The position numbers and the translations under genes were made by a program. The notes below the pieces were generated by a model that saw only the letters and a program-made list of their open reading frames with translations, did not search any database and had not been told where the DNA came from. A DNA stretch of 64,000 nt. Origin: Bradyrhizobium sp. CER78 (lineage in GTDB: Bacteria; Pseudomonadota; Alphaproteobacteria; Rhizobiales; Xanthobacteraceae). Location of the stretch: positions 434,001 to 498,000 of the forward strand of contig NZ_JARVWP010000004.1 in the NCBI RefSeq assembly GCF_029846235.1. The letters run 5' to 3'. Positions 20,796-64,000 of the stretch are shown here, one piece after another. Positions within the stretch are counted from its first letter, which is position 1. Each line of letters opens with the position of its first letter.

Positions 20796-20872
20796 GCGCT
20801 CGTAGCTCAGCTGGATAGAGCATCGGATTTCGATTCCGAGGGTCGGGAGTTCGAATCTCTCCGAGCGCGCCA
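20796..20872 (+). tRNA. tRNA-Arg, anticodon UCG
   Basis: The 77-base sequence folds as a standard tRNA: acceptor arms GCGCTCG/CGAGCGC, D-arm GCTC...GAGC, anticodon stem TCGGA/TCCGA around loop TTTCGAT (anticodon TCG, reads CGA), T-loop TTCGAAT, discriminator G and an encoded CCA. No integrase is next to it, so there is no sign of use as an attachment site here. Confidence 0.96.
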
Positions 20873-59764: not shown

Positions 59765-60032
59765 GTCGTCCCTGCGAAAGCAGGGACCCGTAACCACGGA
59801 TGCATGTTGCGAGAGGGATCGTCGCTCCAGCGTCGTGCAAAAATCGGCAATTGGGGTAATGGGTCCTGGCTTTCGCCAGGACGACGAGGAGGATGGCTTT
59901 CGATTCAAGATGTCGAAGAGCGCGGTGTCATCACCCGCGAAAGCGGGTGATCCAGTATTCCAGAGGCAGCAGTGCTTGAGCCGAGAAGCCGCGGCGTACT
60001 GGATCGCCCGGTCGAGCCGGGCGATGACAGCT
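59765..60032. repeat. Composite palindromic repeat element, copy 2
   Basis: The same block order as at 10555-10823: GTCGTCCCTGCGAAAGCAGG, the inverse CCTGGCTTTCGCCAGGACGA, then GTCATCACCCGCGAAAGCGG, ATCCAGTATTCCAGAGGCAG and the closing GGGCGATGACAGCT. The inner spacers differ, while blocks and even ATTCAAGATG between them are kept. The rest of 59742-60174 holds no supported gene. Confidence 0.85.
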
Positions 60033-60174
60033 GTAGGTGCGGATCGAGCTTCGCGTTCTCGCGACATGAATCGTCCGAGCTTTGCTCTTCGTTTCCGCCC
60101 GCTTGAAGAGAGCGCGGCAAAAGCCGGGTGCCGATTGACTTGCACGCCCCCAAATCAGCGCGCGGCTGAGCGCC

Positions 60175-60522
60175 TCACATCAGCTTCAGCGGCGCATCGT
60201 GCACCAGGCGCAGGTCGATATTGCCAATCAGCCGCGCACGGCGCGCCTCGGCGGTGCTGATGGCGGCCTCGGTTTGCCGCAAGGTGCTGACGTTCGATCC
60301 GAGCGACACGATGCCGCCGAGCACCAGCGCAATCGACCCGAGCGCCGCGGTTTCTCCTGAGCCCAACAGGCCGAGCAGCGTGACGAGCAGCAGCACGAAC
60401 CCGCCGGCGATTGCCACCTTCGATCCGAGAATGATCCGCCGCGACCGTTCGGCGCTCTCGGCAAGCTCCTCGATCTGCGCCTCGATCTCGGAGATCTCGT
60501 CGGCCGGCTCGTCTTCGGTCAT
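60175..60522 (-). CDS. Small membrane hypothetical protein
   Basis: A 115-residue product: an acidic coiled N-terminus (DEISEIEAQIEELAESAERS), two adjacent membrane helices (VAIAGGFVLLLVTLLGLLG; TAALGSIALVLGGIVSLGS) and a charged C-terminal helix (LRQTEAAISTAEARRARLIG). No family recognised. It is the last gene with the typical high-GC bias before the composition changes. Confidence 0.65.
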   Translation of the reverse strand: MTEDEPADEISEIEAQIEELAESAERSRRIILGSKVAIAGGFVLLLVTLLGLLGSGETAALGSIALVLGGIVSLGSNVSTLRQTEAAISTAEARRARLIGNIDLRLVHDAPLKLM

Positions 60523-60782
60523 GACTTCTAACTCTAGAGAGGATTAGGCGACTGCGTCCTCCGTAGCTCAACGAGCGAACGCGGACGCCGTGACGCGCCG
60601 CCGATCGTGCCGGAGGTGGTGGATTACGCTTGGGCTAACCGTCTCGCTCGCTACTCGCTCGCTCATCACGGGGAATATCCGGGCCTTCGTTCTTACGCTT
60701 CTTAACGAATTCGGACGAAATTGAGAGCGGCATTCGATCAATTCCTGGCTTCCCACAATACTTCTCCCGCAGCTCCGCACTC
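60523..60782. other. Intergenic region at the composition boundary
   Basis: 260 bases with no supported gene between the high-GC membrane protein gene and the AT-richer genes to the right. No tRNA, integrase or direct repeat is visible that would mark an insertion point. Confidence 0.4.
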
Positions 60783-61430
60783 TCACGCTCCGAAACAAGG
60801 CTGTACTTTAGTAAAGGCGGTGATCATGGCCCGCGAGTGGAAATTGCGAATCGCGCGAATGGATCGAACGATGAAGCGCGCAACAGCGTCCATCCCCTCA
60901 CCTATATCACCCCGCCGCGCACGCTCGAAGATTGGTCGACTTAGTATCTCCTCCGAGAACTCAAACAACGTCACACCGGACATCCGGCCCAAAATCATGC
61001 GGAGCGGATGACTTCCGTCCAACTTGTCTAGTGATTCTGCAGCAAATTTCGCGTCATAGTGAAACGACATCGTGTTTCTCTGTATGCGGGCCCAATCTCC
61101 GGCTTTTAGGCTCGTGGCAATCTGCTCGTATTCCTTCTTCAAATCTCTATGAAACTCGTCAGACATCATATCCTGCCGAAAGAACTTTTGGCAAAGATCA
61201 TGGTATTCGACGATCTTCGACACAATAATCCGATCAATAGTATATCTCCGCGCCAAAATAAGAGCTGACTCGACATCATTTGTGCTCTCAAGCGACTGCT
61301 CAAAAACGATGTAGGGCATTAGCGACACGAGCTCGTTGCAACAATGACTGGACGCGACTAGAAATCCGAGAGCTTGGCGCTCAATCTTTCTCAGATCGCC
61401 GGCAGTGAAGCGGAAGACGAATACCTCCAT
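60783..61430 (-). CDS. Helical hypothetical protein of the terminal accessory region
   Basis: I do not recognise the family. The 215-residue product is mostly helical (EVFVFRFTAGDLRKIERQAL; EYEQIATSLKAGDWARIQRN; FEFSEEILSRPIFERARRGD) with no signal peptide. The ATG follows GAGGAATCG. Codon use is AT-richer than in the rest of the window (AGA, TTA, ATA). It lies downstream of the PLD-like gene on the same strand with a 124-base gap, so it may belong to the same unit. Confidence 0.7.
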   Translation of the reverse strand: MEVFVFRFTAGDLRKIERQALGFLVASSHCCNELVSLMPYIVFEQSLESTNDVESALILARRYTIDRIIVSKIVEYHDLCQKFFRQDMMSDEFHRDLKKEYEQIATSLKAGDWARIQRNTMSFHYDAKFAAESLDKLDGSHPLRMILGRMSGVTLFEFSEEILSRPIFERARRGDIGEGMDAVARFIVRSIRAIRNFHSRAMITAFTKVQPCFGA

Positions 61431-61554
61431 CGATTCCTCACAATGGCAAATGTTGCACGCAATCCGGCGTCTAGACCTACTTACCTTTCACCCATCAGCT
61501 TCGAAATTGCGAGACTCTTGATCGCGTCGGGACTTCTGCCATCCCGCCCGCGTG

Positions 61555-62568
61555 TCACCTGGAAGCGGACTTCTTGGCATGCCGCAGCAAAATTGGGACC
61601 GCGTCCTCTAACCTTAGTAAGCGCCCATCTGCGGAGCCCTTTGCCTTTCGCCACAAGTCTTGGGCTGCAGACTTCAGTACGCGCCTATCTCGTGCCGACA
61701 GTCTGTAGCCGAAGCCATCATCCCTCGAACCCAGCACATAGGTTATGCTCGTCTTCTCACCGTCTGCAATGATTGGCCACGCCTTCTTCGTGTTGAAAGT
61801 CCGACAATGGTAGATGTCGGTGAACGTACGGCCCTTGATACGACAGCTAATGAGGAAGGTGTCTGCGGGCAATTCCGGCCAGTTCGAAAACCAATCCAGC
61901 CTTCGAAAATCCCTCCTATCGATCTTGAGGGTCTCCTCTAGCGTCTCCGCGCTCTCCCTGAAATGGCGCCGCGCTTCTCCATTCTCAGCCTGCGAAGTGT
62001 AGTCAGTCCAAAGTGCGAAGGATATCTTCTGCTGCTTAAATTCCTGGGCGGCATTGTCCTCCAGGGCCTCGATGAAGCTACGCCGAACCCTCGGCTTTCC
62101 CCATACTTTCACTAATCGAGCTTCTCTGGCCTTGCGAAGATCCGTAGCGCTAATTCGCTTGGCAGCTTTGTACTGCCGATCGAACCAAGCCGCGATCTGA
62201 ACAAGCTGACCAGCGTCAGTAACCATGAGGCCGGCCTCAATAAGACCACCGGCGCCTTCCTCTTCCTCTGGCAAACCGTTCGAGGAGATATTGGCCGAGC
62301 TCACGATGGCTTGCCGCTCGGTCCAAATTACCTTGGCGTGCAAGAAATCATTCTGACGGGCTCGAGCACCAAATTTCCTGATGACATCGGGATCGGAAGC
62401 TCCACCGCTTAAGCAGCAGATAAGCCTTACGCTGCGCTGCTGAGGTCTGAGCCGAGTGAGCTTGAGGGCATCCTTTCCCCAATATGCGACCGCGAGATTT
62501 ATTCGACCCTTAGTGCTACAAATTTTCTGGATTTCGCGAGTTAGAGCTCTTCCGTGCAAAAACTTCAT
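61555..62568 (-). CDS. Phospholipase D-like (HKD) domain protein
   Basis: A 337-residue soluble protein. The N-terminal half has the PLD-like fold of the single-motif nuclease type: INLAVAYWGKDALK, CCLSGGASDP, then FLHAKVIWTERQAIVSSANI SSNGLPE-type continuation, with His77 and Lys79 of HxK and Ser/Asn at 90-93. The usual Asp of HKD is Glu or shifted (WTE). The C-terminal half (from about residue 150) is unassigned and contains FALWTDYTS and WPELPADTFLISCRIKGRTF. PLD-family members include nucleases and are frequent in restriction and defence loci. Function here is inferred. Confidence 0.78.
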   Translation of the reverse strand: MKFLHGRALTREIQKICSTKGRINLAVAYWGKDALKLTRLRPQQRSVRLICCLSGGASDPDVIRKFGARARQNDFLHAKVIWTERQAIVSSANISSNGLPEEEEGAGGLIEAGLMVTDAGQLVQIAAWFDRQYKAAKRISATDLRKAREARLVKVWGKPRVRRSFIEALEDNAAQEFKQQKISFALWTDYTSQAENGEARRHFRESAETLEETLKIDRRDFRRLDWFSNWPELPADTFLISCRIKGRTFTDIYHCRTFNTKKAWPIIADGEKTSITYVLGSRDDGFGYRLSARDRRVLKSAAQDLWRKAKGSADGRLLRLEDAVPILLRHAKKSASR

Positions 62569-62754
62569 GGCTTTGGTTCACCTTGGAAATTGGCAGCAAG
62601 ACAACCCGCCACAACCGCCAAATCGGTTGGTCGACCAGGCATTGTGCAGCGCAGCAAACGTCATTATTGCCCACCACTTCAATTTCGACCAAGGGTAGCA
62701 TGGTCACTGATTCTCGCACTTTCATTTTGGGAATTTTGGTCATAAGGGTAAGAG
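62569..62754. promoter_or_regulatory. Divergent promoter region of the PLD-like and ATPase genes
   Basis: 186 bases separate the starts of the PLD-like gene (minus) and the GHKL-ATPase gene (plus). The region is AT-richer than average. No specific operator or promoter consensus could be fixed by eye. Confidence 0.35.
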
Positions 62755-64000
62755 ATGCCACCTACCTCGAAGTCGTCAGACCGTAGCTGCGAGCTGTCGA
62801 CATTCGGACCGCGCATCGAGATAAACGGACATTACGACATCACTCAGTTCCGCCGGTTGGTGGGAGCGATCCGCGAACTAGCCGTTGATCGCGGATATAT
62901 GGATATAATTCTAGACTTCTCAAACTGCACCTTCACGCACGCGCCACCGATGTTAGCGTTGGCGGCCGCTACCGAATACTATCGAGATAATAAGATCGAC
63001 TTTGAACTCCGGTTACCGACAGACGATAATCTCGGCAGACTTTTTCGTAATTCGAATTGGGCTCATATCATAGAACCGGACAAGTACGCTCACTCTGAGT
63101 TTACGAGTCCGATCCACTTACCGGCGCTGCGATACCGCACTTCGGACGAACAACATCGGATCGTAGACGACATCCTGAACAAGATACTCGCAAGCATAAC
63201 CGATTTTAATCGCTCTCATTTCAAGGCGATCGAGTGGTCCATCAATGAAATAACCGACAATGTATTGGTTCATTCTGAATCGCAGCGGGGAGGCTTGATC
63301 CAACTCACCTCACTTAGAAGTAAGAAGCGAGTTGAGTTTGTGGTCTGCGACAGCGGCATTCCAAAGTCTTTGAAATCGTCCGGCCTCAGGATCGGTTCTG
63401 ACGTAGACGCTCTAGCAAAGGCGATCGAGCAAGGCGTTACGAGAGACAAGTCAATCGGTCAGGGCAATGGGCTCTATGGAAGCTATCAGATTGCCGTACG
63501 GAGCGGCGCAAACTTCAGCCTCCACTCCGGGAATGCTACACTCTACTACGCTCCGAAAACCGGTATGCACACGCGAAAAGAGCCCGTCTACTTGCCGGGG
63601 GCAGTTGTTGTTTGCGCCATCGACTATACTCAACCGCTGCTTCTCGAAGAGGCTCTCAACATACGGTCACGCGGCCATACGCCGGTAGACATGATTGAAC
63701 TAAAGTACGAGTCAACAGCAGATGGAAATATCCTGTTTGTGTTGAGGAATGAAAGCGCTTCATTTGGCTCGCGGCCGGCCGGAACTCCGGTTAGGAATAA
63801 GCTCAAAAATCTGATCAGCTTCCTCGAAGGAAACAAAGTTGTCGTTGACTTCGCGGACATTCACCTCGTATCGAGTAGTTTCGCCGATGAGGTCTTCGGA
63901 AAGCTTTTTTTGGAGCTTGGGCCTGTCGAGTTCTCCACTAAGCTCGAGCTCAAGAGCATTGACCCAACGGTCAAGCTCCTAATCGAAAAGGCGATCGTCC
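62755..64000 (+). CDS. STAS-like / GHKL ATPase / STAS-like protein (3' partial)
   Basis: The frame opens at the ATG at 62755 and is still open at the right edge (415 codons seen). Residues 15-100 (IEINGHYDITQFRRLVGAIR, DIILDFSNCTFTHAPPMLAL) look like a STAS-type domain. Residues 150-265 form an anti-sigma-factor-type GHKL ATPase: IEWSINEITDNVLVHSES (N box, Glu160 and Asn169), VVCDSGIPK (G1) and GQGNGLYG (G2). Residues 330-415 (KVVVDFADIHLVSSSFADEV) resemble a STAS-like DUF4325 domain. No kinase His or membrane segment is seen. Codons are AT-rich. Likely a signalling or regulatory ATPase. Confidence 0.85.
   Translation, partial: MPPTSKSSDRSCELSTFGPRIEINGHYDITQFRRLVGAIRELAVDRGYMDIILDFSNCTFTHAPPMLALAAATEYYRDNKIDFELRLPTDDNLGRLFRNSNWAHIIEPDKYAHSEFTSPIHLPALRYRTSDEQHRIVDDILNKILASITDFNRSHFKAIEWSINEITDNVLVHSESQRGGLIQLTSLRSKKRVEFVVCDSGIPKSLKSSGLRIGSDVDALAKAIEQGVTRDKSIGQGNGLYGSYQIAVRSGANFSLHSGNATLYYAPKTGMHTRKEPVYLPGAVVVCAIDYTQPLLLEEALNIRSRGHTPVDMIELKYESTADGNILFVLRNESASFGSRPAGTPVRNKLKNLISFLEGNKVVVDFADIHLVSSSFADEVFGKLFLELGPVEFSTKLELKSIDPTVKLLIEKAIV

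What the first reader, a model, noticed from the sequence alone, without database searches (positions are those of the whole stretch)
60783..64000. Candidate undescribed accessory system: helical protein, PLD-like protein and divergent STAS-GHKL-STAS ATPase
From about 60.8 kb codon use becomes AT-rich and the genes stop resembling housekeeping ones. A PLD-like HxK...SxN protein is followed on the same strand by a helical protein of no known family. Divergently, across 186 bases, lies a soluble protein joining STAS-like, GHKL ATPase and second STAS-like domains. PLD-family nucleases and GHKL ATPases are both recurrent in phage-defence loci, and the composition suggests transfer. That they form one system is inference; the rest of the locus is beyond the right edge.
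Basis: partly seen in the sequence, partly recalled or inferred. Interest (0 to 1): 0.78.

Follow-up and report, generated by a model that had tools for sequence, protein, structure and literature searches.

The report
Mobile kinase fused to its switch
An AT-rich three-gene insert beside a housekeeping gene is probably not one defence system: its most telling gene is a lone mobile gene, found in many bacterial phyla, that joins in one protein a kinase and a target domain which known bacterial immune switches keep as two proteins.

Summary
In detail: three AT-rich genes encode a PLD-like protein, an orphan protein and, divergently, a STAS-GHKL-STAS protein. Nothing more lies beyond the edge: the last gene ends at 64023 and pccB follows. 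'One system' is not supported. In L032 the STAS-GHKL-STAS gene (89% identical) lies in the same spacer without the other two; 0 of 88 loci fetched by likeness to it carry a relative of either. The spacer is a small hotspot: 46-162 bp in 39 of 67 related genomes, 408-1944 bp in 28.

The STAS-GHKL-STAS model is confident (pLDDT 90.7): RsbV-like STAS, SpoIIAB-like kinase, VapS-like STAS. It resembles the kinase-substrate pairs CapK-CapS and VapK-VapS (PMC13373217), but in one chain and without wHTH or toxin. The acceptor serine aligns with S374, invariant in 65 of 65. Relatives occur under 12 phylum labels, without a recurrent partner beyond syntenic genomes and one common enzyme family; the gene is AT-richer than its surroundings in 84 of 88 loci. 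The window copy alone of 83 lacks two residues of the G1 ATP-binding box. Function is inferred.

The parts
60175..60522 (-). g115: 115-aa gene of the genus, left flank of the insertion site
   Evidence: found in 136 of 146 genus genomes, own included; next to pccB in the 67 other genomes where the pair was resolved
60587..60640 (.). left copy of a degenerate direct repeat of about 55 bp; the right copy lies past the window at 64158-64216 (window numbering carried on). Both match the palindromic intergenic repeat that fills the short spacers of relatives
   Evidence: the right copy has 25 other partial matches in the own genome
60783..61430 (-). P0001, orphan protein of 215 aa
   Evidence: no relative in 396 other order genomes, 145 other genus genomes, plasmids, phages, viral contigs or the loci; codon-position GC 0.53/0.39/0.58, like its two neighbours in the insert
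61555..62568 (-). P0002, PLD-like protein of 337 aa with one HxK...SxN motif; DrmC-like
   Evidence: PLDc_2 E 0.011; DrmC models E 1.3e-4 and E 6.7e-4, far below cut-off
62755..64000 (+). P0003, STAS-GHKL-STAS protein of 422 aa (gene ends at 64023, past the window): STAS about 11-110, kinase about 118-293, DUF4325 STAS about 326-417; acceptor-serine candidate S374

Best explanation
The stretch is a composite accessory insert in a small hotspot between pccB and g115, not one system. Its informative gene is a solitary, horizontally moving, single-protein partner switch: a CapK/VapK-like STAS-GHKL serine kinase fused to a CapS/VapS-like STAS substrate. Most likely mechanism: a stress signal (by analogy single-stranded DNA from DNA damage or phage infection, bound between the first STAS and the kinase) activates the kinase; it phosphorylates S374 of the C-terminal STAS in the same chain or in a partner subunit; this changes what that STAS binds and so releases or captures a host target. 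Shown here: the architecture, the likeness to VapK/VapS and to SpoIIAB and RsbV folds, the invariance of the acceptor serine and of N-box and G2 residues, the AT-rich occurrence without a recurrent partner under 12 phylum labels. Inferred: kinase activity, the signal, the target, a role in phage defence. The PLD gene is a separate DrmC-like nuclease candidate with varied neighbours; the 215-aa gene is an orphan. In this genome the switch may be impaired, because two residues of the ATP-binding G1 box are missing.
For: Model pLDDT 90.7, pTM 0.87. VIA-align: 118-293 on SpoIIAB 1til Z 14.7, rmsd 2.5, 135 aligned; 11-108 on RsbV 6m36 Z 11.5, rmsd 2.2, 95 aligned. Profile against PDB sequences: best hit VapS 9z7o, E 8.5e-5 at 334-409. 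hhalign: VapK of Deinococcus 96.9%, E 1.7e-10 over columns 42-287; VapS of the same operon 90.5%, E 1.4e-6 over columns 331-407. S374 invariant in 65 of 65. No P0001 or P0002 relative in 88 loci fetched by P0003 likeness. L032 carries P0003 alone at the same site. Gene AT-richer than the rest of its locus in 84 of 88, by 5 points or more in 73. Hotspot: 67 genomes. No PADLOC model in more than 2 of 117 near or 2 of 120 far neighbour proteins. 103 relatives in genome contigs; six viral contigs.
Against: No activity, signal or target was measured. By sequence two histidine kinases (E 0.0023, 0.0026) rank before SpoIIAB (E 0.0064), and Foldseek alone ranks topoisomerase and Hsp90 chains first. 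The fold comparison gave no row for the C-terminal STAS among those shown. The residue proposed to stack on ssDNA in CapK/VapK cannot be placed with certainty: Deinococcus VapK has W53 opposite F60, but column 60 is not conserved; an aromatic residue stands somewhere in 56-67 in 54 of 65. Many loci are short contigs, so partners further off would be missed. Near-identical loci (L036/L037, L026/L092) are counted apart. The window copy may be defective, though L062 and L080 also lack the second G1 glycine, by substitution.
Confidence: 0.6

Rival explanations
1. The three genes are one three-component system: the STAS-GHKL-STAS switch controls the divergent PLD nuclease and the orphan protein, as VapK-VapS controls VapC.
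For: Adjacent, divergent, alike in composition; one same-genus operon has a P0002-type PLD gene beside a related STAS-GHKL kinase and a helicase (L017); G146 holds relatives of P0002 and P0003 at distant sites.
Against: No P0001 or P0002 relative in 88 P0003-type loci; L032 has P0003 alone at the same site; no P0001 or P0003 relative by tblastn around 12 of 14 other PLD places of the genus; 7 of 11 plasmid records with a PLD relative viewed, no neighbour annotated as GHKL or STAS in the six that are annotated.
Confidence: 0.1
2. P0003 is a regulator of host partner switching or lysogeny, carried by prophages and islands, that acts on host sigma-factor or STAS networks and has nothing to do with defence.
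For: SpoIIAB and RsbV folds; six viral contigs carry relatives, in L026 between ORFs that I read as lysis and baseplate genes; no recurrent defence partner.
Against: By sequence its best solved relative is VapS of an anti-phage operon, and the VapK kinase aligns along the whole STAS-GHKL part.
Confidence: 0.2
3. The insert is a remnant of DISARM (DrmA, DrmC).
For: PADLOC labels: P0003 to a 'DrmA' model E 1.1e-29, P0002 to DrmC models E 1.3e-4.
Against: The 'DrmA' match is to positions 116-385 of a 1750-position model; a VapK kinase matches the same part, E 1.4e-10; P0003 has no helicase part and no helicase, DUF1998 or methylase gene lies in the insert.
Confidence: 0.03

Closest known systems
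VapK-VapS of VapKSC (PMC13373217)
   Same: STAS-GHKL kinase and STAS substrate of the same families; acceptor serine kept
   Different: Fused in one chain; no VapC-like gene downstream (pccB follows); no C-terminal tail after the STAS as in VapS
CapK-CapS (PMC13373217)
   Same: Kinase-STAS logic; the paper describes STAS and GHKL domains and a phosphorylated serine
   Different: No N-terminal HTH, no wHTH, not before an immune operon; the paper reports 443 capK, all followed by a separate capS
SpoIIAB-SpoIIAA and RsbW-RsbV partner switches
   Same: Folds of kinase and first STAS
   Different: Separate proteins and without the extra N-terminal STAS (recalled); no sigma factor gene beside P0003
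DrmC-type PLD proteins (for P0002)
   Same: Short match round the HxK...SxN motif
   Different: Score 19.2 bits against a cut-off of 133; no DrmA or DrmB partner

Membership tests
VapKSC | STAS-GHKL kinase of the VapK family | tested here: met
   hhalign 96.9%, E 1.7e-10 over columns 42-287
VapKSC | VapS-like STAS with the conserved Ser/Thr | tested here: met
   E 8.5e-5 to VapS 9z7o; S48, if the tag of the chain has 18 residues, faces S374, invariant 65 of 65
VapKSC | VapK, VapS and VapC encoded by three adjacent genes | tested here: not met
   kinase and STAS are one ORF and pccB follows
CapKS | CapK with N-terminal HTH and CapS with wHTH | tested here: not met
   model runs from STAS to STAS without an HTH or wHTH domain (fold of the first domain)
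CapKS | upstream of an immune operon | tested here: not met
   pccB follows on the other strand; no PADLOC model in more than 2 of 117 near neighbour proteins of the family
CapKS/VapKSC | kinase activated by ssDNA | not testable with these tools
   needs a kinase assay
DISARM | DrmA helicase and DrmB (DUF1998) | tested here: not met
   insert holds three genes, none a helicase; the 'DrmA' match covers only the kinase-STAS part of that model
Two-component sensor kinase | local response regulator | tested here: not met
   neighbouring ORFs are P0002, P0001, g115 and pccB

The most novel reading that the evidence does not exclude
A widespread single-gene immune or stress switch that I did not find described: sensor, kinase and substrate of the CapK-CapS/VapK-VapS type fused into one mobile protein that needs no dedicated effector gene and acts on a conserved host target, spreading alone through at least 12 phyla and in prophages.
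Probability: 0.35. Interest if true: 0.75.

Novelty: new variant of a known kind. Interest (0 to 1): 0.52.

Why it matters
Kinase-STAS switches were shown in 2026 to arm bacterial immune operons and a toxin after DNA damage, with kinase and substrate as separate genes (PMC13373217). A solitary fused form without an effector gene makes a question testable: what does the switch act on when no toxin or operon comes with it? A universal host target would be a new kind of single-gene stress or defence device. It also shows that one PADLOC 'DrmA' model marks this kinase family.

Tried and rejected
One three-gene system: rejected. DISARM: rejected on gene content. A longer locus to the right: rejected by extending the contig. 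tRNA at the site: one in the window, at 20796, none in the 40 kb of L009 and L010. Rfam in 60100-64000: no match at gathering scores. Promoter and terminator patterns in 62300-63000: none. Viral scans with P0001 and P0002: no relative. P0001 against PDB sequences: best E 0.48; its model is useless. P0002 against PDB sequences: none. Whether P0003 reached the spacer once or twice (window and L032) is undecided: synonymous sites are saturated in P0003 while dS is 0.40 in pccB and 0.79 in g115, but codon bias differs between these genes. Enrichment of defence genes near the family: not seen; 103 PADLOC families among 117 near proteins against 138 among 120 far ones, none in more than 2 proteins (only 25 families of each are listed). 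That I found no description of a fused STAS-GHKL-STAS protein rests (one library of open-licence papers) and on the find calls in PMC13373217. VIA-align lists no row for the C-terminal STAS; that is inconclusive.

Full report
What is there. Three ORFs lie at 60783-61430 (-), 61555-62568 (-) and from 62755 (+), with 186 bp between the divergent starts. GC is 0.50-0.54 in them and 0.63-0.65 in the full 1-kb bins on either side; third-position GC is 0.58-0.61 against 0.84-0.92 in three nearby genes. The contig runs on beyond the window. The last gene ends at 64023 (422 aa) and is followed by a gene that I read as propionyl-CoA carboxylase beta subunit (pccB). The insert is thus three genes and nothing more. 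No call names the genus; I would guess Bradyrhizobium.

The site. The 115-aa gene g115 on the left was found in 136 of 146 genus genomes, own included. I resolved the pccB-g115 spacer in 67 of the 135 other genomes that have g115. It is 46-162 bp in 39 and 408-1944 bp in 28; in the window it is 3709 bp. The longer spacers hold different small ORFs, some of which I read as Fic, HD-domain and membrane proteins from their motifs, not from a search. The short spacer is a palindromic intergenic repeat; both ends of the window's insert match it and form a degenerate direct repeat of about 55 bp. The right copy has 25 other partial matches in the genome. How the insert arrived is not shown.

Are the three genes one system? 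A scan of genome contigs with a four-member alignment of the P0003 family gave 103 relatives among 204 candidate stretches; the best 80 were kept as L032-L111. Viral contigs gave L026, L027 and L112-L115, plasmid records L028 and L029. In these 88 loci tblastn found no relative of P0001 or P0002; many are short contigs and the flanks reach 10 kb at most. L032, a metagenome contig labelled Hyphomicrobium, has a P0003 gene 89% identical between relatives of the same two flanking genes, without the PLD and orphan genes. P0003 relatives were found in 3 of 397 order genomes and 2 of 242 genus genomes, one of these weak; P0002 relatives in 6 of 397 and 14 of 242; P0001 in 1 of 397 and 1 of 146; the own genome is counted each time. 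G146 has relatives of P0002 and of P0003 about 3 Mb apart.

The PLD gene. Of 14 other PLD places in the genus I fetched regions of 12 (and L017), and saw gene lists for 11: neighbours vary, and several I read as helicase, nuclease or restriction-like genes. By tblastn none of the 12 has a P0001 or P0003 relative. One, L017, has a STAS-GHKL kinase of the same wider family (hhalign 98.8%, E 1.2e-16) in a row with a helicase that I read as DUF1998-type; its PLD reading frame is broken after about 35 codons. Of the 11 plasmid records with a PLD relative I viewed 7, one without annotation; in the other six no neighbour is annotated as GHKL or STAS protein.

What P0003 is. The model from 65 sequences has pLDDT 90.7 and pTM 0.87. 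VIA-align places 118-293 on SpoIIAB (Z 14.7, rmsd 2.5, 135 aligned) and 11-108 on RsbV (Z 11.5, rmsd 2.2, 95 aligned); Foldseek alone ranks topoisomerase and Hsp90 chains first, with poor superposition, and SpoIIAA and SpoIIAB at ranks 19 and 21. Against PDB sequences the profile's best hit is Escherichia VapS, E 8.5e-5 at 334-409; two histidine kinases follow at E 0.0023 and 0.0026, then SpoIIAB at 0.0064 and TM1442 at 0.011. In the VapS alignment residue 66 of the chain, which is S48 if the tag has 18 residues, faces S374. A vapKSC operon turned up on a Deinococcus gobiensis plasmid; its kinase and STAS protein match the two parts of the family by hhalign, E 1.7e-10 and 1.4e-6. W161, E165, N169, H173, D199, G237, G239, G242, R340, S374, S375, A377, D378 and E379 are invariant in 65 of 65.

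Known biology. In PMC13373217 (abstract, sections 7, 11, 12, 13 and 14, and find passages) CapK, activated by ssDNA, phosphorylates the repressor CapS on a serine and so de-represses immune operons; VapK and VapS are proposed to act in the same way on a VapC toxin, and the vapKSC operon gave about 2 logs of protection against one phage. All 443 capK found there are followed by a separate capS. The find calls showed no mention of a fused form. The YprA preprint PMC12458937 was seen only as find passages; other papers only as listings.

Occurrence. Among 88 family loci (L024, L026-L028, L032-L115) the gene is AT-richer than the rest of the locus in 84, by 5 GC points or more in 73; two near-identical pairs are counted apart. 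Neighbour families shared by four or more loci come mainly from syntenic sister genomes (Gemmatimonadota, Chloroflexota, Nitrospira and one group of four); the widest, in 7 loci, looks like a short-chain dehydrogenase, a common family, and four of its loci are such sisters. PADLOC scans took 117 of 146 ORFs within 1.5 kb (62 loci; sampling, then three large ones left out) and 120 of 174 ORFs at 5 kb or more: no model matched more than 2 proteins in either set. The near ORFs include carboxyltransferase, aconitase, Cpn60 and cytochrome oxidase matches, and also HipA-like and restriction proteins. On the tree 74 of 83 rows carry a phylum, 12 phyla in all, with 17 label changes (least possible 11, shuffled mean 31.8): transfer between phyla, but also clustering. 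Phylum labels come from record titles, many of them metagenome bins.

The window copy. Alone of 83 sequences it lacks two residues in the G1 box; L032 keeps them. L062 and L080 lack the second glycine of that box by substitution. Against L032, codon positions 1, 2 and 3 are 88, 95 and 45% identical, dN is 0.07 and dS saturated, so the protein has been under selection. The deletion may weaken ATP binding; this was not tested.

Verdict.

Noticed in passing
L017:5565-10181 (genome G253, same genus): A row of a CapK/VapK-like STAS-GHKL kinase, a helicase that I read as DUF1998-type, and a P0002-type PLD gene with a broken reading frame.
   Followed up: partly
pccB-g115 spacer in genus genomes (L117-L185): A small hotspot: 28 of 67 genomes have 408-1944 bp of extra sequence with different small ORFs there.
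   Followed up: partly
PADLOC model PDLC02567 ('DrmA', 1750 positions): It matches 65 of 65 members of the P0003 family and a VapK kinase, so this label may misname STAS-GHKL kinases as DISARM.
   Followed up: partly
L191:2512-4864 (Deinococcus gobiensis plasmid P5): An HTH gene, an ATP-binding protein, a STAS-like protein and a PIN protein in a row: by content a vapKSC operon.
   Followed up: partly
window 60000-60136: A dispersed repeat: most of the 43 other matches in the own genome to the 4-kb query fall on its first 138 bases.
   Followed up: no
L027:7896-9214 and L029:540-1748: In a low-GC prophage and an Alicyclobacillus plasmid the STAS-GHKL part and the DUF4325 part lie in two reading frames or genes, the unfused state.
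   Followed up: partly
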